Below are positions 5,171-34,264 of a stretch of 40,785 bases of DNA, one piece after another. A model generated the notes under the pieces. It made no database searches and was not told where the DNA came from. It saw only the letters and a program-made list of their open reading frames with translations. A program made the translations under genes and the position numbers. How positions within the stretch are numbered: the stretch's first letter is position 1; each line of letters opens with the position of its first letter. Source of the DNA: Oscillospiraceae bacterium (GTDB taxonomy: Bacteria > Bacillota > Clostridia > Oscillospirales > Oscillospiraceae); the NCBI GenBank assembly GCA_902785905.1, contig CADAAM010000024.1:1-40785 (forward strand), read 5' to 3'.

Positions 5171-5186
5171 TGGCGGAACGGGTAAG

Positions 5187-12516: not shown

Positions 12517-12560
12517 TGTCGTTTTGCTCGTCCCTGGTGGGACAACCGCAAAACATGACA
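12517..12560. repeat. Structured 44-nt motif, copy 1
   Basis: TGTC (12517-12520) pairs with GACA (12557-12560). GTTTTGC (12521-12527) pairs with GCAAAAC (12548-12554). Linker TC leads to an inner hairpin GTCCC-tggt-GGGAC (12530-12543), followed by linker AACC and, after the 7-bp stem, a 2-nt bulge AT. Copy 2 at 34221-34264 has the same lengths and linkers with different stem sequences. The 493-bp gap 12375-12867 holds this motif, a palindrome at 12571-12600, a weaker GCCTGC/GCAGGC hairpin near 12640-12660 and two promoters, but no convincing gene. Confidence 0.7.
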
Positions 12561-12570
12561 ATATTGCTTC

Positions 12571-12600
12571 TGCTTCGGCGATTATTTAATCGCCGAAGCA
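12571..12600. repeat. Perfect 14-bp palindromic hairpin
   Basis: 12571-12584 and 12587-12600 are perfect reverse complements with a TT spacer. No T-run follows on either strand, so it is a poor terminator. It sits 10 bp after the 44-nt motif, repeating the pattern of hairpin clustering seen in other gaps of the window. Confidence 0.75.
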
Positions 12601-12774
12601 ATAAATACCGGACACACGGTGATCTGCGGGCGGCGGGCCTGCACGCCTCGGGCGCAGGCATGGAAACAGACACAAGATATGGAACGTAAATCAAGCCGCA
12701 GCGCAAGGACTTGTGCCGGAACATTTTTCGCAAAATCGCGCAGGAAAGAGTCAAATGATAACAAAAAGTTTCAC

Positions 12775-12803
12775 TTGCATTTTCAGAAAGGCCCTCATAT
12801 AAT
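12775..12803 (+). promoter_or_regulatory. Sigma-A promoter of the dcw operon
   Basis: TTGCAT (12775-12780), a 17-bp spacer and TATAAT (12798-12803), 64 bp before mraZ. The leader contains GTGGATGAAAGTGGGGCAAAATGGG-type GTGG repeats (about 12812-12836). MraZ of other bacteria binds direct GTGGG-type repeats ahead of its own gene, so autoregulation is likely. Confidence 0.8.
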
Positions 12804-12867
12804 AAAACTGGAGTGGATGAAAGTGGGGCAAAATGGGTCAAAAAACCACTAAGGGAGGGCGCCGGAC

Positions 12868-13284
12868 ATGACAGGGGAATACCAGCATTCTCTTGACAGC
12901 AAGGGAAGGCTGTTCATACCCGCCAAGCTCAGGGATGAGTTGGGCGAGGTCTTTTTTATCACGATTTCCATGGACCGCTGTCTCTGCGCCTACAGCGGCG
13001 AGAGCTGGAAGGGTCTGACCGAACGGGTCGACGCCATGCCCTTTGTCAAGCAGCGCAAGATGCGGCCTCTCTTTGCCCACGCCGCAAAATGCGAGCTGGA
13101 CGCCCAGGGCCGCATCCTGATCCCGCAGAACCTCCGGGACTACGCGGGCTTTACGAAGAACGTGACGGTCGTGGGCTGCAACAACCACGCCGAGCTCTGG
13201 GACAGCGAGGCCTGGCGCGCCGTCTTTGAACAGGAGACCACGCCGGAGAATATCGCGGCGGTGATGGAGGAGCTGGAATTTTGA
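12868..13284 (+). CDS. mraZ: Transcriptional regulator MraZ
   Basis: First gene of the dcw cluster and a DNA-binding protein of the AbrB/SpoVT fold that controls the cluster in other bacteria. It has the two tandem MraZ repeats, each with the DxxGR core: DSKGRLFIPAKLRDE (residues about 10-24) and DAQGRILIPQNLRDY (about 78-92). Its length (138 aa) is typical. A strong ribosome-binding site (AGGGAGGG) precedes the ATG. The stop codon overlaps the TTG start of rsmH, which implies translational coupling. GTGGATG and GTGGGGC repeats in the leader, close to the promoter, are good candidates for its binding box. Confidence 0.95.
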   Translation: MTGEYQHSLDSKGRLFIPAKLRDELGEVFFITISMDRCLCAYSGESWKGLTERVDAMPFVKQRKMRPLFAHAAKCELDAQGRILIPQNLRDYAGFTKNVTVVGCNNHAELWDSEAWRAVFEQETTPENIAAVMEELEF

Positions 13285-14214
13285 CGACGGATACGGATAA
13301 GCGGAGCGGGGCGCACATCTCCGTTTTGCTTCATGAGTGCATAGACAATCTGAACATCAGGCCGGACGGGATCTATCTCGACGGCACGCTCGGCATGGGC
13401 GGGCATTCCTTTGAGATCGCCTCCCGGCTCACCGAGGGGCGGCTCATCGGCATCGACCGGGACAGGACCGCCATCGAGAGGGCCGGAAGGCGTCTCGCGC
13501 CGTTCGGGGACAAAGTGACGCTGGTACACGGCAATTTCTCGGACGCCGCCGCCATCCTGGACAGCCTCGGCATCGAGGGCGTGGACGGGATGCTCTTCGC
13601 AGCTGGACGAGGCCGAGCGCGGCTTTTCCTATATGCTGGACGCCCCGCTGGACATGCGTATGGACGGCAGCGCCGCGCTGACCGCCGGGGAGATCGTCAA
13701 CACCTGGAGCGAGGATCGGCTCAACCGCATCCTCTGGGATTACGGGGAGGAGCGCTGCGCCAGGCGCATCACGGCGGCCATCCTGAAACGCCGGGCCGAG
13801 AGACCCATCGAGACCACGCAGGAGCTGGTGGACGTGATCCGCGCCGCCATGCCCGCCGCCGCGCTGAGAGAGAAGCAGCACCCGGCCAAGCGCACGTTCC
13901 AGGCCATCCGCATCGCGGTCAATGACGAGCTGGGCGCGGTCGCCTCCATGATGGACTCGGCCCCGGACAAGCTCAACAAAGGCGGCAGGCTCTGCGTCAT
14001 CAGCTTCCATTCCCTGGAGGACCGGATCGTCAAGTCCGGCATCCAGGCGCGGGAGCACGGCTGCACCTGTCCGCGCGAGGCCCCGATCTGCACCTGCGGC
14101 TTTGTGCAGACACTCAGATCCGTGACAAGAAAGCCCATCCTCCCCAGCGCGGAGGAACTGGAGCATAACCCGAGATCGAGAAGCGCCAAGCTCCGGGTGG
14201 CCGAGCGCGTATGA
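13281..14214 (+). pseudogene. rsmH: 16S rRNA (cytosine-1402-N4) methyltransferase RsmH, broken by an internal deletion
   Basis: RsmH methylates C1402 of 16S rRNA using S-adenosylmethionine. The frame opens at TTG 13281, overlapping mraZ, with GGAG upstream and HISVLLHE plus the SAM loop GTLGMGGHS. It runs correctly to VDGMLF (codon ending 13598). One base later the next reading frame resumes with QLDEAERGFSYMLDAPLDMRMD and continues to the normal C-terminus (FHSLEDRIVK, RSRSAKLRVAERV) at 14214. Comparison with the family shows that DLGVSSP is missing: about 20 bp are lost and the frame is shifted. The first frame ends at 13925 in unrelated sequence. As written, no functional RsmH can be made. 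The clean flanks point to a recent deletion or an assembly error. Confidence 0.9.
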
Positions 14215-14501
14215 GAAGGGACATCAGCCTGAGCGCCCTGCTCTTTCGTGTCGTGTGCGTCGTGTTTTCGGCGGTATTGCTGGTCATGGCCCTGTTCGCC
14301 CAGATCCGTACCGTCCGTACAGAGACGAGGATCGGGGAGCTTGAAAAGGCCCTCGCCGACGCGGAGAATGAAAGAATATTGCTGCAGATCAAAACAGACA
14401 GCGCGCTGAGCCTGGAAGAGCTCGAGCGCCGCGCCGTGACGGAACTCGGCATGCGGCGTCCCGAGCCGGGACAGCTGCGCGTGATCGACTATTTGGGATA
14501 A
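14211..14501 (+). CDS. ftsL: FtsL-like cell division protein
   Basis: A small bitopic protein in the position of ftsL, between rsmH and the penicillin-binding protein. It has a short cytoplasmic N-terminus, one membrane helix (about residues 9-31) and a heptad-containing extracytoplasmic coiled coil (about 33-65, ELEKALADAENERILLQI), ending with the AVTELGMRRPEPGQLRVI pattern typical of FtsL/DivIC proteins. In the divisome such proteins pair with FtsB/DivIC and FtsQ to activate FtsWI. The ATG overlaps the rsmH stop (ATGA). Sequence conservation in this family is low, so the call rests on position and architecture. Confidence 0.85.
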   Translation: MRRDISLSALLFRVVCVVFSAVLLVMALFAQIRTVRTETRIGELEKALADAENERILLQIKTDSALSLEELERRAVTELGMRRPEPGQLRVIDYLG

Positions 14502-14554
14502 AGAGTCGGCCTGCCGAATAAGCTGTGGATAAGCAGTTTCGTTCGGAGGCGTAT

Positions 14555-16864
14555 ATGACAAACCAAACGCAGAAAACGGCGTCTGTCTCACGGCAGATGC
14601 TGAGAAGGGGCGCGGTGCTTGCGGCGGTTTTCGGCGTGGGCGCCTTTGCCGTCTTACTGGCAAGGCTTTACAAGCTGCAGATCACGGACCATGCGTTTTA
14701 CGAAAACCTGGCCATCTCCCAGCAGCTGCGCGAGGCCCCCGGCACGGCGGCGCGCGGGCGGATCTATGACCGCAACGGGAACGTCCTCGCGGTCAGCGCC
14801 ACGGTGGACAACGTCTATCTGAGCCCCGCCGAGATCGAGGCCAACGGCGAGGACCGGGAATTGATCGCCCGGGGCCTTTCGGAAATCCTCGACCTCGACT
14901 ATGACGAGCTCTACGAAAAGACCGGGCGCAAGGGGAGCTGGTACGTGACCGCGGCGCGCAAGATCGAAGCCGACAAGGCCGCCGAGATCCGAAAATTCAA
15001 GACCGAAAACCACATCAGCGGCGTCCGCTTAGAGCCCGACACCAGGCGCTATTACCCCAACGGCCGCCTCGCCTGCCATCTGCTGGGCTTTGTCGGCACC
15101 GACAACTACGGGCTCGAGGGCATCGAGGCCCGCTATGACGACGCCCTCTCCGGCACGGCGGGCAGGAGCCTGCGCGCCACCAACGCCTACGGGGGCGAGA
15201 TGCTGCTGCGCCGCTATGAGGAGTACCGCCCCGGAGAAGACGGGCAGGACCTCTTTACCACCATCGACGCGAGCATACAGTACTATGTCGAAAAGCATCT
15301 GCGCCAGGCGGTGCTGGATTACGACGCGCTCAACGGAGCGGGGGCCATCGCCATGGACGTCAACACCGGGGCGATCCTCGCCATGGCGTCCCTGGGGGAC
15401 TACGACCCGAATCACTTCCTCGCGGTGAGTCCCGAGGCGCAGATCGCCGTAGACGCCGCCGCGACGAAGGAGGAGGCCGCCGCGCTGTTAGCCGGGGCCC
15501 AGGCCAGACAGTGGCGCAACAAGGCCCTGTCCGACACCTATGAGCCGGGCTCCACCTTCAAGATCATCACCCTCGCCATGGCCCTCGAGGAGGGCAAGAC
15601 CGGCCTCGGGGACAGCTTTTACTGCGGCGGCAGCACCACGGTGCCGGGGCGCACAAACCCCATCCGCTGCTGGAAGAGCGGCGGCCACGGCAGCCAGACC
15701 CTGACCCAGGCCGTGCAGCACTCCTGCAACGTCGCCTTCGTCAACATCGGCCAGCGCGTCGGGGCGGAGCGTTTTTACGACTACTGCGAGGCCTTCGGCT
15801 TTTTGAAGCTCTCGGACGACCCGGACGCAAACCTCACGGCCCGCACGGGCATCGACCTGTCGGGTGAGAGCGGGAGCATCTGGTGGAGCAGAAACACCTT
15901 TTGCTCGAAGAAAAACCTCTCGCAGCTCGCGGCGGCGTCCTTCGGCCAGACCTTTACCATCACGCCCCTCCAGCTTGTCACGGCGGTGAGCGCCTGCGTC
16001 AACGGCGGCAGACTCATGGAGCCCTATGTGGTGCAGCGCCTTGTCGAGCCCGACGGCAGCGTCAGCTTTGAGCATGAGCCGAAGCTCGTTCGCCGCGTCA
16101 TCAGCGAATCGACCAGCCGCAAGGTGAGGGAGATCCTGGAGCAGGTGGTGGGCGATCCCAACGACGGCACCGGCCGCAACGCCGCCGTCCCCGGCTACCG
16201 CATCGGCGGCAAGACCGGCACCAGCGAAAAGGTCAGCCTTGAGGCCCGGACCGGGCAAAAGGAGTACATCGTCTCCTTTATCGGCGTGGCCCCGGCGGAC
16301 GATCCGAAAATCGCCCTGCTGGTTTTTCTCGATACGCCCAGCGACAAGTCCGGCGTCTACGTCAGCGGCGGCCAGATGGCGGCCCCCGTGGTGGGGCGCA
16401 TGCTGGCCGACATCCTGCCCTACCTCGGCGTAGAGCCGACAGGCGCCGATAACGGCGGCGCGGTCATGCCCGCCTGTACCGGCCTCGATCTGCCGCAGGC
16501 CGCGGAAAAGCTCAAAGACGCGGGGCTGCGCTGCAGAACCATAGGCGGCGGCAGCGCCGTCACCGATCAGCTCCCGGCCGCGGGCACGGTCCTCGCGGAG
16601 GGGACGGAGGTCATCCTGTACTTTGACGCGGAGATTTCACCCGATCTGGAGAGCCTGCCGGAGCTCACGGGCTTAAACTACGAGCAGGCGCGCGACACGC
16701 TCTCCTATTACGGGCTCTATCTCACCACGCGCAGCAGCGTCACCGATCCGGCACGGCAGACCGTCGGCGCGCAGAGCCTCCCGGCGGGCACCGAGCTCCG
16801 CCACGGCAGCGTGGTCGAGGTCACGCTGATCGACAGCGATGAAGAGCTGCTGGGAAGATATTGA
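14555..16864 (+). CDS. Class B penicillin-binding protein (FtsI/SpoVD type) with two PASTA domains
   Basis: A DD-transpeptidase that cross-links peptidoglycan at the septum or, if SpoVD, in the spore cortex. I chose the ATG at 14555, with GGAGG 5 bp upstream, over an in-frame GTG at 14525. After a membrane helix (about residues 17-36) comes the PBP dimerisation domain (RGRIYDRNGNVLA onward). The transpeptidase domain has the three active-site motifs: STFK (serine nucleophile), SCN and KTGTS. Two PASTA modules end the protein (from about PACTGLDLPQAA and LPELTGLNYEQA). Two PASTA domains fit PBP2B/FtsI as well as SpoVD relatives, so I leave the symbol open. It probably acts with the FtsW encoded downstream. 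Confidence 0.92.
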   Translation: MTNQTQKTASVSRQMLRRGAVLAAVFGVGAFAVLLARLYKLQITDHAFYENLAISQQLREAPGTAARGRIYDRNGNVLAVSATVDNVYLSPAEIEANGEDRELIARGLSEILDLDYDELYEKTGRKGSWYVTAARKIEADKAAEIRKFKTENHISGVRLEPDTRRYYPNGRLACHLLGFVGTDNYGLEGIEARYDDALSGTAGRSLRATNAYGGEMLLRRYEEYRPGEDGQDLFTTIDASIQYYVEKHLRQAVLDYDALNGAGAIAMDVNTGAILAMASLGDYDPNHFLAVSPEAQIAVDAAATKEEAAALLAGAQARQWRNKALSDTYEPGSTFKIITLAMALEEGKTGLGDSFYCGGSTTVPGRTNPIRCWKSGGHGSQTLTQAVQHSCNVAFVNIGQRVGAERFYDYCEAFGFLKLSDDPDANLTARTGIDLSGESGSIWWSRNTFCSKKNLSQLAAASFGQTFTITPLQLVTAVSACVNGGRLMEPYVVQRLVEPDGSVSFEHEPKLVRRVISESTSRKVREILEQVVGDPNDGTGRNAAVPGYRIGGKTGTSEKVSLEARTGQKEYIVSFIGVAPADDPKIALLVFLDTPSDKSGVYVSGGQMAAPVVGRMLADILPYLGVEPTGADNGGAVMPACTGLDLPQAAEKLKDAGLRCRTIGGGSAVTDQLPAAGTVLAEGTEVILYFDAEISPDLESLPELTGLNYEQARDTLSYYGLYLTTRSSVTDPARQTVGAQSLPAGTELRHGSVVEVTLIDSDEELLGRY

Positions 16865-16954
16865 GAGCCTTGCGCAGCGGATGTAAGATCACTAATTCTT
16901 GCAATTGCCTGTGCGGTTTCCGCTCACAGGCTTTACCCTGCGCCTTGCGCCCCC

Positions 16955-17099
16955 CATTCTTTCTTTTCGTCTTGCCGAAAAGAAAGAATGCGCCGCGCCC
17001 GGGATTCCGGGCCGCCGCTGCCGGCGGCAGAGGAAGGCGGCCCGGAATCTCTGCAGCCGCGCCATTGGCGGGCCGTCGCGAAGCAGGCCCGCCAATGGC
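16955..17099. repeat. Three successive long hairpins between the PBP gene and murE
   Basis: The 416-bp gap 16865-17280 carries no convincing gene. It holds a 15-bp perfect hairpin (16955-16969 with 16976-16990), a 14-bp perfect stem (17003-17016 with 17036-17049) containing a nested CTGCC/GGCAG hairpin, and a 14-bp perfect stem (17061-17074 with 17086-17099). A smaller CCTGTG/CACAGG stem precedes them near 16910-16931. None is followed by a good T-run. The murE ribosome-binding site (TTTGGAGG) is at the right-hand end of the gap; I see no clear promoter. Confidence 0.85.
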
Positions 17100-17280
17100 A
17101 TTGCGGCAAGGCGGGGTAAGAAAGAAAAGGGCGCTTCCAAGTGGTATACGGTCCTGCGCCACGCCGTCCGCGGAGGGCTTCGCTTACGCTCGCGCCGCTG
17201 CCTGGTCAGACAGGTAAGTTTTTTGCTGCGATGTGACAATAATTGTGTGAGATTGATTAACCCTTTGGAGGAACAGAGAC

Positions 17281-18738
17281 ATGAAGCTGTCAGAGCTTTT
17301 GAAGCATATCGAGGTGTTGGAGGCGACGGCCGATCCCGCGCTCGAGATCACGGGGATCAGCTACGACTCCCGCAAGACGAAGCCGGGCGAGCTCTTCGTC
17401 GCCGTCAAGGGCTTCGAGACCGACGGACACAAATACATCCCCAAGGCCGCGGCAAACGGCGCGGCGGCGGTCCTGTGCGAGGACGCGCCGACCGACGGGA
17501 CGCCCTATGTAAAAATCCGCGACTGCCGCCTCGGCCTCGCCCTGGTCAGCCGCGAGTTCTACGGCAACCCGGCGGGGGAGATGAAGCTCATCGGCTTTAC
17601 CGGCACCAGCGGCAAGACCAGCTCCACCCACATCATGAAGCATGTGCTGGAAACGATGGCGGGGGCGAAGGTCGGCCTCATCGGCACCAACGGCAACATG
17701 ATCGGCGAGCGCGTCCTCCACACCGAGCACACCACGCCCGAGAGCCTGGAGCTGCATCAGCTCTTTCGCCGGATGAGGGACGAGGGCTGCACCCATGTGG
17801 TGATGGAGGTCTCCTCCCACTCCCTGACCCTTGAGCGTGTCGCGGGCATCGACTTTGACGTCGCGGTGTTCACCAATCTCTCGCAGGACCATCTGGATCT
17901 GCACGGGACGATGGAGGCCTACGCCGCCGCCAAGAAGAAGCTCTTCTCCCAGTGCGGGATCGGCTGCATCAACATCGACGACGAGCGCGGGGCGTACATG
18001 ATGGAGGGCGCGGCCTGTCCCTTCCTGCGCTACACGGCCCGGGGCAGAGACGCCGAGCTTCTTGCCGAAGACGCGCGCTCCACGGCGGACGGAGTGAGCT
18101 TTACGGCCCGATACGGCGGGGAGAGCGCGCAGACGAAGCTCGCCATCCCCGGCCTCTTCTCGGTCTACAACGCCCTGAGCGTGCTGGCGGCCTGTCTCGC
18201 CCTCGGCATGAGCCTGAGTGACGCAGCCGCCGGGATCAGCAGTGCGGCCGGCGTCAAGGGGCGCATGGAGTCCGTGCCGACGGACGGGGACTACAGCGTC
18301 ATTATCGACTACTCCCACAAGCCGGACGCGCTGGAAAAGGCCCTCAGGGCCCTGCGCCCGGTGACGCGCGGACGCCTCATCGTCCTCTTCGGCTGCGGCG
18401 GCGACCGCGACCGCCTGAAACGCCCCATCATGGGCAGAATCGCAGCCGAGAACGCGGATCTTGTGATCGTCACCAGCGACAATCCCCGAACCGAGGACCC
18501 CATGGACATTATAAACGAGATCCTTCCCGGGGTCGAAAGCGGGCATACGCCGTACAAAATGATCTGCGACAGAATCGACGCGATACGCTGGGCTATTGAC
18601 AACGCCGCCCCCGGTGATGTAATATTGCTTGCCGGCAAAGGCCACGAGGATTACCAGGTCATCGGCCATGAGAAGCATCACATGGACGAGCGGGAGATCG
18701 TGGCGGGCTGGCTGAAAGAGAGAAAAGAGAGGCCTTGA
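17281..18738 (+). CDS. murE: UDP-MurNAc-L-Ala-D-Glu:meso-diaminopimelate ligase MurE
   Basis: A cytoplasmic Mur ligase adding the third residue of the peptidoglycan stem peptide with ATP. It has the N-terminal UDP-binding domain (ITGISYDSRKTKPGELFVA), the ATP loop GTSGKT near residue 108, the TTPE motif and the C-terminal ligase domain. The motif DNPRTEDP near residue 400 is the diaminopimelate-selective DNPR sequence, so the cell wall should contain meso-diaminopimelate. The length (485 aa) is normal. TTTGGAGG precedes the ATG. mraY follows after 24 bp, where murF would normally stand. Confidence 0.95.
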   Translation: MKLSELLKHIEVLEATADPALEITGISYDSRKTKPGELFVAVKGFETDGHKYIPKAAANGAAAVLCEDAPTDGTPYVKIRDCRLGLALVSREFYGNPAGEMKLIGFTGTSGKTSSTHIMKHVLETMAGAKVGLIGTNGNMIGERVLHTEHTTPESLELHQLFRRMRDEGCTHVVMEVSSHSLTLERVAGIDFDVAVFTNLSQDHLDLHGTMEAYAAAKKKLFSQCGIGCINIDDERGAYMMEGAACPFLRYTARGRDAELLAEDARSTADGVSFTARYGGESAQTKLAIPGLFSVYNALSVLAACLALGMSLSDAAAGISSAAGVKGRMESVPTDGDYSVIIDYSHKPDALEKALRALRPVTRGRLIVLFGCGGDRDRLKRPIMGRIAAENADLVIVTSDNPRTEDPMDIINEILPGVESGHTPYKMICDRIDAIRWAIDNAAPGDVILLAGKGHEDYQVIGHEKHHMDEREIVAGWLKERKERP

Positions 18739-18762
18739 GCCTCTGACAATACGGAGCAATAT

Positions 18763-19788: not shown

Positions 19789-19819
19789 GCGCCGTTTGAA
19801 AGGCCGGGGAGGTGGGAAT

Positions 19820-21064: not shown

Positions 21065-21069
21065 AAAAC
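21039..21069. repeat. 11-bp hairpin overlapping the end of ftsW
   Basis: 21039-21049 pairs perfectly with 21059-21069 around a 9-nt loop. The ftsW stop codon lies in the second arm. An imperfect CTCG/CGAG hairpin occurs just upstream (about 20991-21016). Confidence 0.7.
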
Positions 21070-21125
21070 GATTGGAAAGAAAGGCAGTTTGAATCGGCTA
21101 TTTCGCAGACAGAAAGGAAACCGAT

Positions 21126-22244
21126 ATGAACTTTATCTTTACCTGCGGCGGAACCGCCGGGCACATCAACCCCGCCCTCGCGGTGGCCGGGAGACTCAGA
21201 GAGCTCATGCCTGACAGCCGCTTTCTCTTCATCGGCGTCAACGGCAAGATGGAGATGGAGCTTGTACCCCGCGCGGGCTATGAGATCCGCGGTCTCAGCA
21301 TGACCTATATTGTGCGCGGCCACAGCCTGCACGCCCTTGCACAGAATCTGGAGACGCTGCGCAACGTCGCGCGCTCGACCCGGGAGGCCAAGCAGATCAT
21401 CCGGGAGTTTAAGCCCGACGCCGTGATCGGCACGGGCGGCTATATCTGCTACCCGGTACTCACCGCGGCGCACGAGCTGCACATTCCGACCCTCATCCAT
21501 GAGAGCAACGCCGTCCCCGGCCTCACGACGAAGCTCCTTTCCGAAAAGGTCAGCCGCGTCATGGTGGGCTTTGAGGAGAGCCGTCTGTACTACCGCCATC
21601 CCGAGCGCGTGACCGTGACCGGGACCCCGGTGCGCGGTGAGTTCGACCGTATTTCCAGGGAACAGGCGCGCGCGGAGCTCGGCATCCCCGAGGGCGGGAA
21701 GCTGGTGCTGTCCGTCTGGGGCTCCCTCGGTGCGGAACATATGAACAAGGTCATGGGGGAGCTGATGGAAAAGCTCAACGGCGCGCAGGGCTTCCGCCTC
21801 ATCCACGCGGCGGGCAGGCTCTATTACCCGCGCCTGACCGAGAAACTGAAAGACAAGGACCTCGAGCACGCCGGGATCGAGATTCGCGAGTACATCCACG
21901 ACATGCCCCGCCTCATGGCGGCGGCGGATCTGATCCTCTGCCGGGCCGGGGCCTCCACCATCTCCGAGCTGAGCTATATGGGCAAGCCCGTCGTCATGGT
22001 CCCGTCCCCGAACGTGACCAACAACCACCAGGAGAAAAACGCCCGCGTCCTCGAGCACGCAGGCGGCGCGGAGGTCATGCTCGAAGGCGAGTTTGACGCG
22101 GACTCCCTGCTCTCACGCGTGCAGGCGCTGTTAGCCGACACGCAGAAGCTCGAAGACATGGGGGAGGCCATGCGCTCCCTCGCCGTCCGCGACGCCTGCG
22201 ACAGGATCGCGGACATCGTGCTGGAAAGCTGCAAAAAAGAGTGA
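21126..22244 (+). CDS. murG: UDP-GlcNAc:lipid I N-acetylglucosamine transferase MurG
   Basis: A membrane-associated GT28 glycosyltransferase that converts lipid I to lipid II. The N-terminal CGGTAGHINPALA glycine loop, GTGGYICYPVL and HESNAVPGLTTKLL are present. The C-terminal donor-binding half has CRAGASTISEL and NNHQEKNA. The second glycine-rich loop reads VWGSLGAEH rather than the usual GGSLGA, a small departure. The length (372 aa) is typical. AGAAAGGAAACC precedes the ATG. The stop codon marks the start of a palindromic element, so the transcript may be processed or terminated before murA. Confidence 0.95.
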   Translation: MNFIFTCGGTAGHINPALAVAGRLRELMPDSRFLFIGVNGKMEMELVPRAGYEIRGLSMTYIVRGHSLHALAQNLETLRNVARSTREAKQIIREFKPDAVIGTGGYICYPVLTAAHELHIPTLIHESNAVPGLTTKLLSEKVSRVMVGFEESRLYYRHPERVTVTGTPVRGEFDRISREQARAELGIPEGGKLVLSVWGSLGAEHMNKVMGELMEKLNGAQGFRLIHAAGRLYYPRLTEKLKDKDLEHAGIEIREYIHDMPRLMAAADLILCRAGASTISELSYMGKPVVMVPSPNVTNNHQEKNARVLEHAGGAEVMLEGEFDADSLLSRVQALLADTQKLEDMGEAMRSLAVRDACDRIADIVLESCKKE

Positions 22245-22350
22245 AGAGTGGAGAGTGGAGAGTGGAGTTATGGTATCCCCTTCGGGGATGAATTAAATGT
22301 CGCGAAGCGACACCTTAACTTCACTCTTCACACTCCACACTCCGCACTCC
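22240..22350. repeat. MITE-like cruciform between murG and murA
   Basis: A left arm of GAGTGGA-type repeats (22240-22270) and a right arm of CACTCCA-type repeats (about 22315-22350) form an imperfect stem of about 30 bp. It encloses two perfect small hairpins: ATCCCC with GGGGAT (22275-22289) and TGTCGC with GCGACA (22298-22312). The element starts at the last codon of murG. No gene lies within it. The arms resemble short palindromic intergenic elements and may be a non-autonomous mobile sequence. Confidence 0.75.
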
Positions 22351-22369
22351 GAACCGAACACAAGTTTTC

Positions 22370-22414
22370 TCCCCCGCATATGATGGACTGATTTCACATG
22401 CGGGGGGATTTTTT
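22370..22414 (+). promoter_or_regulatory. Terminator-like hairpin embedding the murA ribosome-binding site
   Basis: CCCCCGCAT (22371-22379) pairs with ATGCGGGGG (22398-22406) around an 18-nt loop, and six T residues (22409-22414) run directly into the murA ATG at 22415. The G-run of the second arm is the only Shine-Dalgarno-like sequence for murA. It is therefore both a plausible intrinsic terminator and a structure that would hide the ribosome-binding site. Confidence 0.6.
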
Positions 22415-23665
22415 ATGGACATCTGGCGCATCAGAGGCGGGAATCGGCTGAACGGCGCGTGCCGCGTGCAGGGCTCGAAAAATGCCTCCCTCCCCATTCT
22501 GGCGGCCGCGATCCTCTCACCGAAGGAGAGCACGCTTGCCAACGTGCCGCGCCTGCGGGACATCGACGCCGCGCTGCGTATCCTGAGATGCCTCGGCTGC
22601 GAGACAGACCAGCGGGGAAATGAGGTTTACATAAATGCGTCCGGCGTCACGCGCAGCGTCATCCCCCATGAGCTGATGCTGGAGATGCGCTCGTCGGTCA
22701 TCTTCATGGGGGCCCTGCTTGCCCGCTGCGGCGAGGCGCGGCTGAGTCCGCCGGGCGGCTGCCAGCTCGGCAAAAGACCCATCGACCTGCATCTCAAAGC
22801 CCTGCGCCGGCTCGGGGCCGAGGTCGTGGAGCAGGGAGGCGAGATCGTATGCCGCGCCGACAATCTGCGCGGGACGGAGATCGTCCTGCCCTTCCCGAGC
22901 GTCGGGGCGACCGAGAACGTCATGCTCGCGGCGACGGCGGCGAAGGGGGAGACCGTGCTCCGCGGCGCTGCCCGCGAGCCGGAGATCGTCGCCCTGCAGG
23001 ACTATCTGAACAAAACCGGCTGCCGGGTGCGCGGCGCGGGGAGCGGCACCATCTATATTGCGGAGCGCCGGAGCGCAGACGCCGTCAGGCACCGCGTCAT
23101 CGCCGACCGCATCGTCGCCGCCACCATGGCCTGCGCCCTGGCCGCCGCCGGGGGAGAAATCGAGCTGCTTGATGTTTCGCCCCGGCATTTTTCTACCGTT
23201 CTCCACTTCCTAAAACAGGCGGGCTGTGATATAATGTGCCATAATCGCGGCGTGCGCCTGCGCTCGGACGGGAAGCTGCGCGCCGTGGGGGAGGTCCGTA
23301 CCGAACCGTATCCCGGCTTTCCCACCGACGCCCAGCCCGTTCTGACGGCGGCGCTTTTGAAGGCAAAAGGGACGACGGTCGTGCGCGAGACTATCTTTGA
23401 AAACCGCTTCCGCCAGGTCCCGGAGCTGCGCCGCCTGGGCGCGGACATCCGCCTTGCCGGTCAGAGCGCGGAGATACGCGGGGTAGAGCGCCTGCATGGA
23501 GCGGTGCTGAACGCGACCGATCTGCGCGGCGGCGCTTCCATGATCGTGGCGGGACTCTCGGCGGAAGGGGAGACCCTGGTCCGCGACGAGGGCCACATCC
23601 GAAGAGGCTACGAAGGTCTCGATCGGAGACTCGCCGAGCTCGGGGCGGAGATACGACTTGAATGA
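22415..23665 (+). CDS. murA: UDP-GlcNAc 1-carboxyvinyltransferase MurA
   Basis: Cytoplasmic enzyme of the first committed step of peptidoglycan synthesis, transferring enolpyruvate from PEP to UDP-GlcNAc. The start MDIWRIRGGNRLNG and GSKNASLPILAA match the family N-terminus, so the ATG right after the T-run is the proper start. PPGGCQLGKRPIDLHL carries the catalytic cysteine, the target of fosfomycin. PFPSVGATENVMLAA and the C-terminal DLRGGASMIVAGL are present. The length (416 aa) is typical. ftsQ follows 18 bp downstream. Placement inside the dcw cluster is common in Clostridia. Control by the overlapping hairpin is inferred. Confidence 0.95.
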   Translation: MDIWRIRGGNRLNGACRVQGSKNASLPILAAAILSPKESTLANVPRLRDIDAALRILRCLGCETDQRGNEVYINASGVTRSVIPHELMLEMRSSVIFMGALLARCGEARLSPPGGCQLGKRPIDLHLKALRRLGAEVVEQGGEIVCRADNLRGTEIVLPFPSVGATENVMLAATAAKGETVLRGAAREPEIVALQDYLNKTGCRVRGAGSGTIYIAERRSADAVRHRVIADRIVAATMACALAAAGGEIELLDVSPRHFSTVLHFLKQAGCDIMCHNRGVRLRSDGKLRAVGEVRTEPYPGFPTDAQPVLTAALLKAKGTTVVRETIFENRFRQVPELRRLGADIRLAGQSAEIRGVERLHGAVLNATDLRGGASMIVAGLSAEGETLVRDEGHIRRGYEGLDRRLAELGAEIRLE

Positions 23666-23683
23666 TTCTGAGAGGATTGAAAA

Positions 23684-24466: not shown

Positions 24467-24512
24467 GCAAAGGTTACAATAAACAAAAGATTTCGCGAAA
24501 ATAAAAAAACTA

Positions 24513-24541
24513 TTGACTCCTGAAGAGTTTTGTAATAAAAT
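24513..24541 (+). promoter_or_regulatory. Sigma-A promoter of ftsZ
   Basis: TTGACT (24513-24518), a 17-bp spacer and TAAAAT (24536-24541) in an AT-rich 140-bp gap ahead of ftsZ. It gives ftsZ expression independent of the long operon. Confidence 0.8.
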
Positions 24542-24607
24542 ACCGATTGTAGACAGAAATGAAATGATTTGTAACCTATGCGTTAACAATAAATGGGAGG
24601 CAGTTTT

Positions 24608-25810: not shown

Positions 25811-25839
25811 GCGGTTTCGATACCCTCCTTCCTCCTTAT

Positions 25840-25876
25840 TCATCCCTCCCGGTGCAAGCGGGAGGGATGACCCTTT
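25840..25876 (+). terminator. ftsZ terminator
   Basis: A 12-bp perfect stem (25840-25851 with 25859-25870) with a 7-nt loop, followed by CCCTTTT. It lies 30 bp after the ftsZ stop. Confidence 0.85.
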
Positions 25877-25940
25877 TAAAAGAAGCCATCAGACTGCAGA
25901 CAAACCCTTGCAAACCAAGTCGGTCTTGTAAGGGGGATCT

Positions 25941-26018
25941 GTGAAGGGGGACGGGGGAGTCCCCCTTCACGTACAATCCATGCAAAAATGGGAACTTTTT
26001 CGGAAGTTCCCATTTTTG
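25941..26018. repeat. Dispersed hairpin repeat, copy 2, with preceding hairpin
   Basis: 25971-25997 is identical to 10007-10033. The hairpin arms here are 15 bp (25983-25997 with 26004-26018). An 11-bp hairpin, GTGAAGGGGGA with its complement (25941-25951 with 25960-25970), lies directly before it. Copy 1 has a weaker related segment at the same place. Confidence 0.85.
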
Positions 26019-26021
26019 GCT

Positions 26022-26241
26022 CTCGAGCTGTCGACACTTTGTCGACAGCTCGAGTCATGGCTTCGCAAAGCGAAGCCATGACATGTTTTTATACTGGTCT
26101 CCCATAAAACGGCTTAAAGCCGTTTTATAGCGCCAAAGGCGCGTCGGAGACCTATGAGACGTGTTTTGTGCCCTTGGGCACAAAACTGGCAGCGCGCTTT
26201 GCGCGATGCCTTTTCGTTAAAACGAACTGTTTTAACGAAAA
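26022..26241. repeat. Array of seven further hairpins between ftsZ and the pyruvate-kinase-like gene
   Basis: In order: a 15-bp stem (26022-26036 with 26040-26054); a 13-bp stem (26054-26066 with 26070-26082), followed by TTTTT; a closing stem GGTCTCC/GGAGACC (26096-26102 with 26146-26152) that encloses a 12-bp hairpin (26104-26128) and a 5-bp hairpin (26130-26142); an 11-bp stem (26163-26173 with 26176-26186); a GGCA/TGCC plus CGCGC/GCGCG stem (26188-26210); and a 13-bp stem (26211-26223 with 26229-26241). The 437-bp gap 25811-26247 is almost entirely palindromes and contains no gene that I can support. Confidence 0.85.
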
Positions 26242-26247
26242 ACAGTA

Positions 26248-27237: not shown

Positions 27238-27248
27238 ATCCGACATCC

Positions 27249-28325: not shown

Positions 28326-28474
28326 TTATCTCACCGCAACACGCAATACAATAAAATGAAAACCAACACACCCGCAAAAAAGACCGAATGTCCCGCTCAT
28401 CATAATTGCTTATTACATAATACAAAATTCCGTATGATAAAACAATAGGTTTTTAAATTATTTTTAAAGAAAAT

Positions 28475-28500
28475 CGGGACCCGCCGGACGGCGGGTCCCG
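28475..28500 (-). terminator. pckA terminator
   Basis: 11-bp perfect GC-rich stem (28475-28485 with 28490-28500) with a GGAC loop, 24 bp after the pckA stop. The minus strand then reads ATTTTCTTT. The rest of the gap 28326-28474 is AT-rich and featureless apart from the start region of the cyclase gene. Confidence 0.88.
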
Positions 28501-28523
28501 AAAAAGGGTCCTTGTGTTTGAGA

Positions 28524-30111
<1,588 letters not shown>

Positions 30112-30266
30112 ATTGCATCAATCCTCTTTCTTATAATAAATAGGGGTCTCGCACGATGTGTTAAAAATACCACATCCGCGGGACTCCGTCAAGCGTCACA
30201 GTATACAAATCCGCCTGGGTGCATGGGCGTTTCCGGCGGAAAAACCGTGCTTCGTGCACAATCCGT

Positions 30267-30295
30267 TTGACGCAGCGGGCCGATGGTGATAGAGT
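30267..30295 (+). promoter_or_regulatory. Possible promoter of the MATE gene
   Basis: TTGACG (30267-30272), a 17-bp spacer and TAGAGT (30290-30295), in the 215-bp divergent gap between pckA and the exporter. The -10 is a 4/6 match. Confidence 0.45.
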
Positions 30296-30326
30296 ACAAG
30301 GCAGCAAGGAAAGGGGGGCGGACGCG

Positions 30327-31739
30327 ATGGAGCAGACAAACGCCAAATATTTCCGCATGACGACGGAGCCAATCCCGAAGCTGATCTGCACGCTCGCCGT
30401 GCCGACGATCGTGTCGATGCTGGTGACGGCGCTTTACAACATCGCGGACACCTTCTTCGTCGGCCGTCTCGGCACCGAGGCGACGGCCGGCGTCGGGCTG
30501 GTGTTTCCGATCATGGCGGTGATCCAGGCCTTCGGCTTCTTCTTCGGCCAGGGCTCGGGCAACTTCATCTCCCGCTCCCTCGGAGCGAGGCGGGCGGACG
30601 AGGCCGAGTATATGGCCTCCACGGGCGGGTTCTGCGCGCTGCTCTTCGGCGGGCTGCTGACGCTGTTCGGCCTGCTCTTTCGCGGGGCGGTGCTGTATGT
30701 CCTCGGCGCGCGGGAGGGTCTCGTCGCGCCGGGGACGGTGAGCTATGCCTCGGACTACCTGACCGTGATCCTCTGCGGCGCGCCGTTTATGTGCCTGTCG
30801 TGCGTACTGAATAACCAGCTGAGATTCCAGGGCAACGCCTTTTTCGCCATGATCGGCCTTGTGTCCGGGGCAGTGCTGAACGTGGCGCTGGACCCGGTGT
30901 TCATCTTCGGCTTCAGGCTCGAGGTGACGGGCGCGGCCCTCGCCACCGCGGTGAGCCAGAGTGTGAGCTGCGTGCTCCTGTACATCGGGACGCTGCGCAG
31001 CGACAGTCTCAAGCTGCGCGCCCGCAACTTCCGGCCCACGCCGTTTTACCTCAAAAACATCGCCGTCGGCGGCACGCCCTCGCTTTTCCGCCAGGGGCTT
31101 GCCAGCCTCGCGACGCTGTGCCTGAACGCGGCGGCGGGGGCGTCGGTGGCCGCCGGGCAGTCGGACGCGGCGATCGCGGCCTTCTCGGTGGTGAACAAGA
31201 TCATGATGTTCGCCTTCTCGGCCCTTCTCGGCTTCGGACAGGCGTTCCAGCCGGTGTGCGGCTTCAACTGGGGCGCGGGGCGCTATGACCGGGTGCGCCG
31301 GGCGTACATGTTCTGTCTCAAGGTGGGCTTTGCGTTTCTGGCGGCGGCGTCCTGCCTGGGCTATCTCTTCGCGCCGCGCCTTGTGGCCCTGTTCCGGGAC
31401 GACCCCGCGGTCATTGAGTTCGGCACGGTGGCCATGCGCTGCCAGTGCTGCACGTTTACGCTGATGGCGCTGGTGACGATCACCAACATGCTGTATCAGA
31501 ACATCGGGCGCGTGGTCGGGGCGACGCTGCTCGCGGTGGCGCGGCAGGGACTGATGTTCATCCCGGCGGCGCTGATCCTGCCGCGGGTGATAAGCCCGCC
31601 GATCTGGGGCGTGTACCTCGCCCAGCCGACGGCGGACCTCTTCGCGTTTACGCTGGCGCTCATCCTCGCCCTGCGCATGTACAGGGAGCTGAAGAGAAGG
31701 GAAGAGGGAGTCCTGTCAAAGTCAAAAGAAAACTGTTGA
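30327..31739 (+). CDS. MATE-family efflux transporter
   Basis: A 12-helix membrane antiporter that exports drugs or metabolites using Na+ or H+. Family features are PKLICTLAVPTIVSMLVTALYNIADTFFVGRLG at the N-terminus (the usual first two helices), AFGFFFGQGSGNFISRSLG, and in the second half the repeat GFGQAFQPVCGFNWGAGRYDRVR. I chose the ATG at 30327 because AAGGAAAGGGGGG precedes it; the frame is open further upstream but without homologous sequence. The length (470 aa) is typical. The substrate is unknown. The -35 of the next gene overlaps the end of this one. Confidence 0.93.
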   Translation: MEQTNAKYFRMTTEPIPKLICTLAVPTIVSMLVTALYNIADTFFVGRLGTEATAGVGLVFPIMAVIQAFGFFFGQGSGNFISRSLGARRADEAEYMASTGGFCALLFGGLLTLFGLLFRGAVLYVLGAREGLVAPGTVSYASDYLTVILCGAPFMCLSCVLNNQLRFQGNAFFAMIGLVSGAVLNVALDPVFIFGFRLEVTGAALATAVSQSVSCVLLYIGTLRSDSLKLRARNFRPTPFYLKNIAVGGTPSLFRQGLASLATLCLNAAAGASVAAGQSDAAIAAFSVVNKIMMFAFSALLGFGQAFQPVCGFNWGAGRYDRVRRAYMFCLKVGFAFLAAASCLGYLFAPRLVALFRDDPAVIEFGTVAMRCQCCTFTLMALVTITNMLYQNIGRVVGATLLAVARQGLMFIPAALILPRVISPPIWGVYLAQPTADLFAFTLALILALRMYRELKRREEGVLSKSKENC

Positions 31740-31764
31740 TTTTGTGGTAACGGCACCGTATAAT
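31736..31764 (+). promoter_or_regulatory. Sigma-A promoter of the VanW gene
   Basis: TTGATT (31736-31741) overlaps the MATE stop codon; a 17-bp spacer and TATAAT (31759-31764) follow. It drives the vanW-dut pair. Confidence 0.8.
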
Positions 31765-31826
31765 ACAACATATTGACACCATAAACCGTACCCGGCGGCA
31801 CACCGTCCGGGGAGGAGGATATCCGT

Positions 31827-33437
31827 ATGAAGAAATTTTTCGCCTGGCTCGGCGCTTTCCTGGTCTATCTGCTCGCGGTGGCGATGATCATCGGCGTGGC
31901 CGGCATGTTCGCCGGCTACTACCTCTCCAACAGCAAGGAGAATCTCCGCGGCGTGTATATCGGGGACGTCGACGTGAGCGGCATGACGCGGGAGGAGACC
32001 GAGAGCCTTCTGGAAAGCCGCGGCTGGAAAACCGCCGAGAGCACGCCTCTGGTCGTGACCACGCTCAGAGACCAGGGCTTTGAGGTCGACCCGATCCGCG
32101 CCGGGGCCGCCGTCCCGGTGGAGACGCTGGTGGAGGAGGCCTACGCCGTCGGCCATGACGCCGACATGATCTCCAACCTCATCACTGCCGTCGACGTCTT
32201 TATGAGCCCCGTCGACGTCAACCGAACCGAGCGGGAGATCGACACGAACTATATCGACGGCCTCATCGCCGACTGCATCGACCGCATTCAGAGCGGTCTC
32301 GGCGAGGACGGCTACACCGTGGACACCAAGGCATCCCAGCTGAAAATGGTCAAGGGCGGCAGCAGCCTCGACTTCAACCGCGAGGACTTCCGCAGCGCCG
32401 TCATCCAGGCGCTTAAGGAGGGGCGGAGCGAGCTGAGCTACACCCGCATCACCACCCAGCCCGTCGAGCCCGACTTCGAGGCCATCCATACCGAGCTCTG
32501 GAAGGAGCCCTCCGACGCCTGCTACTCCGACGACGGCCGCTTCAACGTGATCGACGAGGTCGTGGGCTGCGAGTTCGACGTGCGCGGGGCCAAACAGCTC
32601 TGGGAGCAGGCCCGGCCCGGCGACGAGGTGATCATCCCGCTGACCATCTCCCGCCCCAACGTCACCGGCGATACCCTCCGGGAGCTGCTGTTCCGCGATC
32701 TGCTGGGCGCGTGCCTGACCAAGTTCCCGAACTCCGGCGCAAACCGCCGCAGCAACCTCCAGCTCTGCGCGTCCAAGATCGACGAGTACATCGTCTACCC
32801 AGGCGAGACCTTCTCGTATAACGAGGTCGTCGGCCAGCGCACCGAGGAGGCCGGCTTCCTGCCCGCCCCCGCCTACGTTGACGGCGCGGAGAAAGACGAG
32901 ATCGGCGGCGGCGCCTGCCAGATCTCCAGCACGCTCTACGCCGCCACCGCCTTCGCCTTCCTCGAGACCGTGGAGCGTTCCAGCCACATGTTCAAGGTCA
33001 GCTACATGCAGCGCGGCACCGACGCCACCGTCACCATCCCCGCCGAGGGCAAGGTCATCGACTTCAAGTTCCGCAACAACAAGCTCTTCCCGGTCAAGAT
33101 CAAGACCTACTTCAACAACGACGAGAGCACCATCAGCGTCGAAATCTGGGGCACGCTCCAGCCCAACGACTACATGCCCGTCGAGTTTGACAATACCTCC
33201 GGCTGGGAGCACGACTATGATCGCGTTATCGAGCCCGCCTACCCCGACCGCCCGGGCTACAAGATCAAGTTCCAGGTCGAGATGTGGGGCTTTGAGGACG
33301 ACTTCTCCACCGGCTACCGCACGCTGACGCATCGGCTCGTCATCGACCAGGACGGCAACACCGTGGACGATCAGATCCTCAACCCGCTGCTGCCCTCCGG
33401 CGGCCCGGCGCTGGATACGTACTATCAGCATCCATAG
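31827..33437 (+). CDS. VanW family protein with N-terminal PG-binding-type domains
   Basis: A membrane-anchored extracytoplasmic protein. One N-terminal helix (about residues 6-31) is followed by a region starting VYIGDVDVSGMTREE, typical of PG_binding_4 domains that accompany VanW and L,D-transpeptidase modules (about 40-290). The VanW domain follows: NRRSNLQLCASKID, VYPGETFSYNEVVGQRT, GFLPAPAYV and GGGACQISSTLYAA (about 300-430). A beta-rich tail ends it. VanW occurs in some vancomycin-resistance clusters, but its biochemical role is not established and most copies, like this one, lie outside such clusters. GGAGGAGG precedes the ATG. dut follows after 9 bp and is probably co-transcribed. 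Confidence 0.9.
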   Translation: MKKFFAWLGAFLVYLLAVAMIIGVAGMFAGYYLSNSKENLRGVYIGDVDVSGMTREETESLLESRGWKTAESTPLVVTTLRDQGFEVDPIRAGAAVPVETLVEEAYAVGHDADMISNLITAVDVFMSPVDVNRTEREIDTNYIDGLIADCIDRIQSGLGEDGYTVDTKASQLKMVKGGSSLDFNREDFRSAVIQALKEGRSELSYTRITTQPVEPDFEAIHTELWKEPSDACYSDDGRFNVIDEVVGCEFDVRGAKQLWEQARPGDEVIIPLTISRPNVTGDTLRELLFRDLLGACLTKFPNSGANRRSNLQLCASKIDEYIVYPGETFSYNEVVGQRTEEAGFLPAPAYVDGAEKDEIGGGACQISSTLYAATAFAFLETVERSSHMFKVSYMQRGTDATVTIPAEGKVIDFKFRNNKLFPVKIKTYFNNDESTISVEIWGTLQPNDYMPVEFDNTSGWEHDYDRVIEPAYPDRPGYKIKFQVEMWGFEDDFSTGYRTLTHRLVIDQDGNTVDDQILNPLLPSGGPALDTYYQHP

Positions 33438-33446
33438 GGAGGAGCC

Positions 33447-33935
33447 ATGTATAAAATCCGCTTCGCCAAAATCAGAGAGGGCGCGGTGATCCCCTCCAGA
33501 CGGGAGGAGGACTCCGACTATGACCTCTACGCCTGCTTCGAGGAGGAGGAGTTCGTCATCCCGCCCTTCTCCACGCGCCTTGTGCCGACGGGGCTCATCA
33601 GCGCGTTCGACAAAAACCTCGGCGTCAGGTTCGAGGAGCGGGGGAGCAACACCAAGTGGTGCGGCATCATCCAGGCCGGGGTCATCGACAGCGGCTACCG
33701 GGGCGAGTGGGTCTGCGCCGTGTATAACGGCAACCCCGTCCCCGTGCATATCACGAAGGCGGCCGACGAGGTCAGACACCTCGGGGACCGGGTGCTGGTG
33801 CCGTACAAAAAGGCGATCTGCCAGTTCCATGTGAGAGAGATCCTGCCGACGGAAATCGAAGAGGCGAGTCCCGACGCGGTGCTCGCCGTCAGCTCCGAGA
33901 GGGGCGCGGGCAGGCTCGGCAGCAGCGGAAAATAA
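33447..33935 (+). CDS. dut: Deoxyuridine triphosphatase
   Basis: Trimeric dUTPase that hydrolyses dUTP to dUMP, keeping uracil out of DNA and supplying thymidylate synthesis. All five family motifs are recognisable: DSDYDLYA (motif 1), EERGSN (2), GVIDSGYRGE (3), KKAICQFHV (4) and RGAGRLGSSGK (5). Motifs 1 and 5 deviate slightly from DAGYDL and RGxGGFGSTG. The length (162 aa) is normal. GGGAGGAGCC precedes the ATG. The gene is the second of a pair with VanW, an association that is probably incidental. A palindrome-rich element starts 6 bp after its stop. Confidence 0.92.
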   Translation: MYKIRFAKIREGAVIPSRREEDSDYDLYACFEEEEFVIPPFSTRLVPTGLISAFDKNLGVRFEERGSNTKWCGIIQAGVIDSGYRGEWVCAVYNGNPVPVHITKAADEVRHLGDRVLVPYKKAICQFHVREILPTEIEEASPDAVLAVSSERGAGRLGSSGK

Positions 33936-34019
33936 CAAATCTGTCATCAAGGGCAAAGCGAAGGATCTTTCTTCGGAGTCTTGCTATAAAAGCTGAGGCC
34001 TTTATAATGATTATCGCAT

Positions 34020-34098
34020 GGAGAAAACGATCGAATTTTCGATCGTTTTCTCCGCCAAACGACACGTTTGGCGGAGAATGATTCTTTGAATCATTCTC
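34020..34098. repeat. Three chained hairpins sharing arms
   Basis: A 16-bp stem (34020-34035 with 34038-34053), a 14-bp stem (34048-34061 with 34065-34078) and an 11-bp stem (34074-34084 with 34088-34098). Each hairpin uses the last bases of the previous one (TTCTCC, then GAGAA), so neighbours compete for the same bases. Confidence 0.85.
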
Positions 34099-34112
34099 GC
34101 GATGCTCATTGC

Positions 34113-34205
34113 AATGAATATCTGGCGCCGCATCCATATTGCGGCGCTGAGCAGCAATGCTGCTCGGCGGAACGCCTTGCGGCGTTTCGCCATCAGATAT
34201 TCATT
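34113..34205. repeat. Cloverleaf-like four-way palindrome
   Basis: A 12-bp closing stem (34113-34124 with 34194-34205) encloses three hairpins: GCGCCGC/GCGGCGC (34125-34147), GAGCAGCA/TGCTGCTC (34149-34165) and an 11-bp stem with one G-T pair (34166-34176 with 34181-34191). It is not a tRNA: no T-loop or anticodon pattern. The left arm also forms the palindrome TCATTGCAATGA (34106-34117). Confidence 0.8.
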
Positions 34206-34220
34206 ATAGTATTTTTGACT

Positions 34221-34264
34221 GTGCGAAATCCTCGCCGCTCACGCGGCAACCGGATTTCACGCAC
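34221..34264. repeat. Structured 44-nt motif, copy 2
   Basis: GTGC (34221-34224) pairs with GCAC (34261-34264). GAAATCC (34225-34231) pairs with GGATTTC (34252-34258). Linker TC, inner hairpin GCCGC-tcac-GCGGC (34234-34247), linker AACC, and 2-nt bulge AC. Same geometry as 12517-12560 with compensatory changes in all three stems. Confidence 0.75.

What the first reader, a model, noticed from the sequence alone, without database searches (positions are those of the whole stretch)
12517..34264. Two 44-nt units with identical architecture and compensatory base-pair changes
12517-12560 and 34221-34264 both read: 4-bp stem, 7-bp stem, linker TC, 5-bp hairpin with 4-nt loop, linker AACC, 7-bp closing arm, 2-nt bulge (AT or AC), 4-bp closing arm. 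Total length and linkers are identical. About nine of the 16 base pairs differ, and every difference keeps pairing (for example GTTTTGC/GCAAAAC versus GAAATCC/GGATTTC). Simple duplication would not leave linkers unchanged and stems changed in pairs; selection on structure would. It may be a small structured RNA, a protein-bound DNA hairpin, or a transposase-recognised end of the IS200/IS605 or REP type.
Basis: partly seen in the sequence, partly recalled or inferred. Interest (0 to 1): 0.78.

Follow-up and report, generated by a model that had tools for sequence, protein, structure and literature searches.

The report
Mobile DNA hairpins that mirror insertion sites
The two 44-base hairpins are the core of a short mobile DNA element, undescribed in the sources I searched, that is scattered through gut bacteria of the Oscillospiraceae and whose arms carry inverted copies of the DNA it landed in, which points to an unusual way of inserting.

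Summary
Confirmed and extended. Nine of 16 base pairs differ between the two 44-nt units and all nine stay paired. A covariance model from the two finds 53 more in the own genome. 18 of 36 other genomes of the genus carry the unit, 0 of 23 sampled genomes of other genera in the order; a pattern scan finds it in other Oscillospiraceae, a model search in a few phages.

It lacks the usual sign of an RNA: stems change through Watson-Crick pairs, G-T no commoner than A-C (20 vs 23). It is the core of a mobile DNA element of about 60-150 bp: [host flank + mirror arm = hairpin H1]-GATTTAA-core-[mirror arm + host flank = hairpin H2]. Filled and empty sites in relatives show insertions, mostly with direct repeats of about 4 to 31 bp. 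Inner arms are inverted copies of the local target: a promoter -10 box, a stop codon, the start of rnhA.

No mobilising protein was found; Y1 transposases do not track it. Best reading: a non-autonomous mobile element recognised by its folded core, its arms written or corrected from the target by template switching. Enzyme and order of events are inferred.

The parts
12517..12560 (+). 44-nt core, copy 1 (GTTTTGC type)
   Evidence: 58.1 bits with model R2, which was built partly from this copy
12508..12516 (+). linker CTGATTTGA (family consensus about TTGATTTAA) directly 5' of core copy 1
   Evidence: column composition
12571..12600 (.). downstream palindrome H2 of copy 1 (14-bp arms, 2-nt loop); no clear H1 was found for this copy
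34221..34264 (+). 44-nt core, copy 2 (GAAATCC type, subfamily A1)
   Evidence: 56.1 bits with model R2
34204..34211 (+). remaining inner arm (TTATAGTA) of the upstream palindrome H1 of copy 2
   Evidence: other A1 copies
34212..34220 (+). linker 5' of core copy 2
34270..34323 (.). downstream palindrome H2 of copy 2: AATCCCCATG ... CATGGGGATT; element ends at about 34326 (TTAC)
34020..34205 (.). array of other perfect hairpins that seems to have displaced the left arm of H1 of copy 2
   Evidence: comparison with other A1 copies

Best explanation
The 44-nt unit is the recognition core of a short, protein-free (non-autonomous) mobile DNA element. Shown: near-identical elements sit at unrelated sites, and sites compared with close relatives are empty there; most compared insertions have direct repeats of the target, of about 4, 6, 8, 11 or 31 bp; the inner arms beside the core are inverted copies of the local flank, so insertions are flanked by near-perfect palindromes H1 and H2 that differ from site to site. 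Inferred: a protein supplied in trans recognises the folded core as single-stranded or cruciform DNA, reading the unpaired TC, AACC and AT; insertion uses pairing between the inner arms and the exposed target strand; DNA synthesis that switches template at the folded end writes the target into the arms, or corrects them to a perfect match. Because the target piece (-10 box, stop codon, start codon) is present again on the far side, the interrupted gene or promoter can stay usable.
For: Multi-copy and patchy: 55 in the own genome, 0 to 21 in 36 others of the genus. Nested copies: an A2 element inside H1 of a C-type element, TTTA on both sides (L020, L021 against L040, L050, L055). Nine head-to-tail copies of period 110 bp in A. 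colihominis DSM 17241. Filled/empty pairs: miaB promoter, G027 filled vs G060 and G000 empty, repeat ATGCTAAAATA; H2's inner arm is its full inverse, H1's inner arm the inverse of its last 7 bases. L141 in G022 vs L436 in G031, at a stop codon. rpsD-rpoA, G022 vs G031. rnhA, G000 vs G027 and G032 vs G017, 31-bp near-repeat. Phage RT gene, L510-L512 vs L513. Palindromes of score 9 or more in 164 (H1) and 188 (H2) of 242 copies, 2 and 4 of 242 base shuffles. Among palindromes of that score, an inner arm fits its own host-side arm better than every other: B 28 of 35 (H1), 25 of 32 (H2); A 36 of 40, 15 of 34; others 61 of 69, 62 of 68. Pairing at DNA level: Watson-Crick 1562, G-T 20, A-C 23, other 30. 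Template switching can make and repair such palindromes (PMC8794818, abstract and start of introduction).
Against: No mobilising gene was found. Whether arms are written at insertion or corrected later is open, and exact deletion between direct repeats could also make 'empty' sites. At rpsD-rpoA the left flank reads TTTCAC, not TTAC, and about six host bases at the junction differ, so no exact repeat is shown there; at the phage site the repeat TGGTAA is uncertain (L513 reads TGGATGTAA). The rnhA insertion is old: its copies of the first 10 codons differ at 2 (G000) and 5 (G032) synonymous sites. A-type H2 arms are largely shared (own best in only 15 of 34). Some copies lack a clear H1 or H2, window copy 1 among them. 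Type B is always co-oriented with the gene to its right (55 of 55), type O more often than not (65 vs 32), and type A leans towards a left gene on the other strand (40 vs 25); a plain mobile element needs directional targets to explain this, and the type A lean is unexplained.
Confidence: 0.62

Rival explanations
1. A REP-like or IS200/IS605-derived miniature element moved by a Y1 (HUH) transposase; A-type copies insert next to TTTAC/TTTA, as I recall for some IS200/IS605 members.
For: A-type copies abut TTAC/TTTA; the core is an imperfect palindrome with unpaired bases, as TnpA-REP substrates are (PMC8266576, passages); the one copy in G015 lies about 155 bp from a Y1 gene and one in G000 (L034) abuts a fragment resembling DNA at the IS200-like locus L080. 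IS608 picks its target by base pairing (PMC5934647, abstract).
Against: Y1_Tnp is found in 25 of 41 genus genomes but in none of 7 of the 18 other carriers (G004, G013, G018, G019, G027, G035, G036, with 2, 2, 7, 2, 4, 21 and 1 copies; assemblies 80-95% complete). No conserved GTAG. Direct repeats of about 6-31 bp at other sites. RAYT genes are described as flanked by two inverted REPs (PMC2817692, abstract); nothing of that kind was seen.
Confidence: 0.17
2. A cis-acting RNA: in promoters and operons H1-core-H2 is a leader or intercistronic RNA that hides the ribosome-binding site and regulates the next gene.
For: Type B has a co-oriented gene downstream in 55 of 55, type O in 65 of 97; several H2 right arms overlap a Shine-Dalgarno-like sequence just before ATG.
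Against: No G-U excess in the core, and in H1/H2 A-C (90) exceeds G-T (55). H1 of type B contains the -10 box itself. Type A shows no orientation relative to the right-hand gene (37 vs 34). Relatives without the element keep the same genes.
Confidence: 0.1
3. No special machinery: ordinary replication template switching plus deletion and duplication spread a stable hairpin, and the covariation is mutational, not selected.
For: Template switching makes and repairs palindromes (PMC8794818, abstract); arms match nearly perfectly; mostly Watson-Crick pairs.
Against: The unpaired TC, AACC and AT are among the best conserved letters, which asks for a recogniser; near-identical copies sit at unrelated sites.
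Confidence: 0.08

Closest known systems
REP/BIME elements with TnpA-REP (RAYT)
   Same: Short intergenic imperfect palindromes, many copies, arrays, conserved unpaired bases
   Different: No conserved GTAG, arrays nearly all head to tail, no tracking Y1 gene, arms copy the target
IS200/IS605-family ends and their miniature derivatives
   Same: Hairpins, TTAC/TTTA next to A-type copies; target choice by base pairing is known for IS608
   Different: Core lies between two palindromes, direct repeats up to 31 bp, pairing arms of about 10-18 nt that differ from site to site
MITEs of DDE transposases
   Same: Short non-coding mobile DNA with target repeats
   Different: Repeat length not fixed; no constant terminal inverted repeats across subfamilies
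Integron attC sites
   Same: Folded single-strand DNA with bulges; tandem arrays (from recall)
   Different: No cassette genes seen and no attC consensus recognised (by eye, from recall; not searched)
Template-switch (quasipalindrome) mutations
   Same: Inverted copies of local sequence, multi-base compensatory changes
   Different: Here tied to one conserved 44-nt core

Membership tests
REP / RAYT | GTAG tetranucleotide 5' of the palindrome (PMC8266576) | tested here: not met
   columns 5' of the core read about TTGATTTAA with no conserved GTAG (126 rows of which 6 were later removed)
REP / RAYT | cognate Y1 transposase gene in carrier genomes, flanked by the element | tested here: not met
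   0 Y1_Tnp matches in 7 of 18 other carriers in the genus; these assemblies are 80-95% complete
REP / RAYT | alternating orientation in BIMEs | tested here: not met
   close neighbours are head to tail in the arrays seen; one opposed pair, 216358- beside 216659+ in G065
IS200/IS605 miniature element | insertion 3' of a fixed short target, no target duplication (recalled) | tested here: not met
   type A fits TTAC/TTTA, but miaB, L141 and rnhA have 11-, 8- and 31-bp repeats, the phage site perhaps 6
IS200/IS605 miniature element | single-strand cleavage by TnpA | not testable with these tools
   needs biochemistry
DDE-type MITE | constant terminal inverted repeats and fixed duplication length | tested here: not met
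   ends and repeat length vary
Known RNA family (Rfam 15) | covariance-model match above gathering score | tested here: not met
   0 in the window; 10 loci gave only SpF59_sRNA in L089 and L092, outside the core; permissive searches of two stretches gave only hits far below gathering score
Structured RNA in general | G-U pairs tolerated more than A-C | tested here: not met
   G-T 20 vs A-C 23 on 109 distinct curated cores; 40 vs 43 on 213; an uncleaned set gave 51 vs 28
DGR component | tied to the reverse transcriptase | tested here: not met
   5 of 9 viral loci with a related RT lack the core; tested for one of the two phage types
Integron attC site | attC consensus and integrase | not tested
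   judged by eye only
Mobile genetic element (general) | filled and empty sites in close relatives | tested here: met
   nested insertion

The most novel reading that the evidence does not exclude
A new kind of mobile element that inserts by pairing its inner arms with the target and overwriting them from it, so that copies carry an inverted record of their landing site beside one conserved core; target length is not fixed, and the mobilising machinery is unknown, perhaps host replication plus one core-binding protein.
Probability: 0.4. Interest if true: 0.9.

Novelty: new variant of a known kind. Interest (0 to 1): 0.75.

Why it matters
Some 250 copies collected here (a few rows look false) sit in promoters, between operon genes and beside genes such as miaB, rpsD-rpoA, rnhA and mraZ in bacteria whose record titles read as gut Oscillospiraceae and relatives; Rfam had no match on the core in the stretches searched, and six literature searches found no description. 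If the target-mirroring holds, it is an integration signature that I recall for no transposon, and a natural system for studying template switching at hairpins. It also warns that strong covariation need not mean RNA: here Watson-Crick covariation without a G-U excess marks a DNA element.

Tried and rejected
1) Structured RNA: Rfam gave nothing on the core above gathering score. A first count (G-T 51, A-C 28 on 115 distinct units) seemed to favour RNA, but that set held six false rows and the outermost pair; after cleaning the counts are 20 vs 23. 2) Y1/RAYT partner; adjacency in G015 and L034 looks incidental. 3) Reverse transcriptase as mobiliser: in one phage type the core follows an RT gene, in another a DGR-like variable gene, but 5 of 9 relatives of the first RT lack the core; the other RTs were not followed up. 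4) A recurring neighbour gene: clustering 1,241 predicted proteins from 274 loci gave no cluster that I recognised as a transposase among the 22 printed, judged by eye from sequence starts; of these only the RTs were scanned with Pfam. 5) Replication-strand bias in A. colihominis: counted by hand, 18 of 23 sites (arrays counted once) run with replication if the origin is at position 1, but this may only follow gene orientation. 6) Empty site for window copy 1: mraZ relatives align only downstream of about 12,696. None was sought for copy 2. 7) The arm-swap test ignored register; one search replaces it. 8) My gene finder and regex typing of subfamilies are crude; 12 of 250 rows fell inside a predicted gene and were left out of the orientation counts, and a few of the 250 rows look false (for example L257, L284). 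9) The outputs were cut, so not every row was read. 10) A phage-record search with one phage site found nothing. 11) A letter search of papers with core pieces listed four papers with unrelated titles, not opened.
Full report
The observation. Both units are at the stated coordinates and fold essentially as described (copy 2 with the bulge shifted by one pair), 0 of 200 shuffles folding as well. Nine of 16 pairs differ and all nine remain Watson-Crick. The window has no Rfam match at gathering threshold and no tRNA. Copy 1 lies between a sulfatase-domain gene and mraZ; copy 2 between two frames without a Pfam match at E 0.001.

It is a family. The pattern TCGCCSSNNNNSSGGCAACC has 29 matches in the own genome, the reversed control 0. 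A covariance model from the two copies alone finds 55, the two included, in 2.73 Mb, with a clear gap to background (30 bits or more against 12.2 in the window). In the genus 18 of 36 other genomes carry it, with 1 to 21 copies each; 0 of 23 sampled genomes of other genera in the order do. In 54 viral loci from three pattern scans, ten full-length matches of 38 bits or more lie in nine loci; eight of these nine are two phage types. L335 and L343 look like chance.

Structure and level. On 31 diverse copies the covariation score is far above both controls, though two of the five measures are not. TC, AACC and AT stay while stems change. On 109 distinct curated cores, without the outermost pair, there are 1562 Watson-Crick pairs, 20 G-T, 23 A-C and 30 others; on 213 distinct cores 3005, 40, 43 and 107. 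An RNA would be expected to tolerate G-U more than A-C, so I read the pairing as held at DNA level. An earlier uncleaned count pointed the other way (see Tried and rejected).

The whole element. Around the core lie an upstream palindrome H1, a linker close to GATTTAA, and a downstream palindrome H2. H1 and H2 differ between subfamilies and between copies. With my scoring, 164 of 242 left flanks and 188 of 242 right flanks hold a palindrome of score 9 or more, against 2 and 4 of 242 base-shuffled flanks (8 of 250 rows had flanks too short). Among distinct palindromes of that score, the inner arm matches its own host-side arm better than every other host-side arm in 28 of 35 and 25 of 32 cases for type B, 36 of 40 and 15 of 34 for type A, and 61 of 69 and 62 of 68 for the rest, a mixed group in which this is easier. 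In 26 rows the left arm of H1 reaches into an upstream open frame of 120 codons or more; several rows are the same site in two frames and some frames are doubtful. The better-supported ones by protein sequence are a response-regulator-like protein ending GYKWNVE (L228), a ligase-like protein before a PFOR-like gene (L325) and a phosphoribosyltransferase-like protein (L334) (names are my reading, not a family search).

Filled and empty sites. (a) miaB promoter: G060 and G000 have one copy of the -10 region; G027 has ATGCTAAAATA on both sides of the element; the inner arm of H2 is its full inverse, that of H1 the inverse of its last seven bases. (b) L141 in G022 against L436 in G031: the host reads GATTACTGAAAAGG; the filled site reads GGATTACTGAGAAAGC, a 4-nt loop and the exact inverse, and TGAGAAAG again on the right. 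(c) rpsD-rpoA: insertion directly after the rpsD stop codon in G022, absent in G031, whose rpsD is 94% identical; the repeat there is not exact. (d) rnhA: 31 bp from ATG are nearly repeated around the element in G000, G004 and G032; G027 and G017 are empty; the H2 inner arm follows the synonymous Ala codon of each species (GCT, GCC, GCG). (e) A phage RT gene: L510-L512 filled, L513 empty, repeat uncertain. (f) A nested A2 copy in H1 of a C-type copy, TTTA on both sides. These show mobility and that arms follow the target. They do not show when the arms are made.

Context (by my gene finder). Type B (arms mirror TGGTATAATA-like -10 boxes): 59 copies, right gene co-oriented in all 55 that have one within 400 nt. 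Type A: 37 against 34, with the left gene on the other strand in 40 against 25. Type O, mixed: 65 against 32. For type B the fixed orientation is explained if the target, the -10 box, is directional; the lean in type A is unexplained. A. colihominis DSM 17241 has 39 matches (150 of 2,554 candidates were scored), nine of them in one array of period 110 bp.

What moves it. No partner was found. Y1_Tnp occurs in 25 of 41 genomes, but in none of 7 of the 18 other carriers. Recurrent neighbours gave no cluster that I recognised as a transposase in the 22 printed. The reverse transcriptase beside some phage copies is not needed: five of nine relatives lack the core. Variable direct repeats (about 4 to 31 bp) fit neither a DDE transposase nor plain Y1 insertion as I know them. 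Template switching during replication can write and repair inverted copies (PMC8794818: abstract and start of introduction), so I propose arm-target pairing plus template switching with a core-binding protein. These steps are inference.

Literature. Searches for intergenic palindromes in Oscillospiraceae, IS200/IS605 miniature elements, miniature elements in Ruminococcaceae, Anaerotruncus repeats, quasipalindromes with mobile elements, and core letters showed no description in their listings. The library lacks most subscription papers. Compared families: REP/TnpA-REP (PMC8266576, passages; PMC2817692, abstract) and IS608 (PMC5934647, abstract).

Noticed in passing
window 34020-34205: A run of perfect hairpins (GGAGAAAACGATCGAA..., GAGAATGATTC..., AATGAATATCTG...) that looks like a second repeat family inserted in H1 of copy 2.
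   Followed up: partly
window 10015-10058 and 25983-26018: Two copies of another long palindrome, CAAAAATGGGAACTT...AAGTTCCCATTTTTG.
   Followed up: no
window 5120-5172 and 26211-26241: Further long palindromes; TTTTCGTTAAAAC of the second also occurs beside the core in locus L162.
   Followed up: no
L093, L094, L168, L264 (rnhA): The element sits in a short frame starting with the RnhA N-terminus (MKTVEIYTDGE...RPARRLRGNRRTW); the two copies of the first 10 codons differ only synonymously in L168 (2 sites) and L094 (5 sites), with one amino-acid change in L093, as if the short frame were translated and kept.
   Followed up: partly
L336-L338, L342 and L339-L341, L344 (viral contigs): Both phage types carry the core beside DGR-like genes (an RT, or a WWLRD variable region); relatives of the first RT lack it.
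   Followed up: partly
L476:1040-1083: Core between two genes that I read as serine recombinases; H1 covers the upstream stop codon and H2 the downstream start codon.
   Followed up: partly
L089, L092: Rfam SpF59_sRNA match just downstream of the core in two related loci, on the other strand.
   Followed up: no
G064:C1:395921-396845 (A. colihominis DSM 17241): Nine head-to-tail copies of period 110 bp; six more of period 109 bp at 22128-22717.
   Followed up: no
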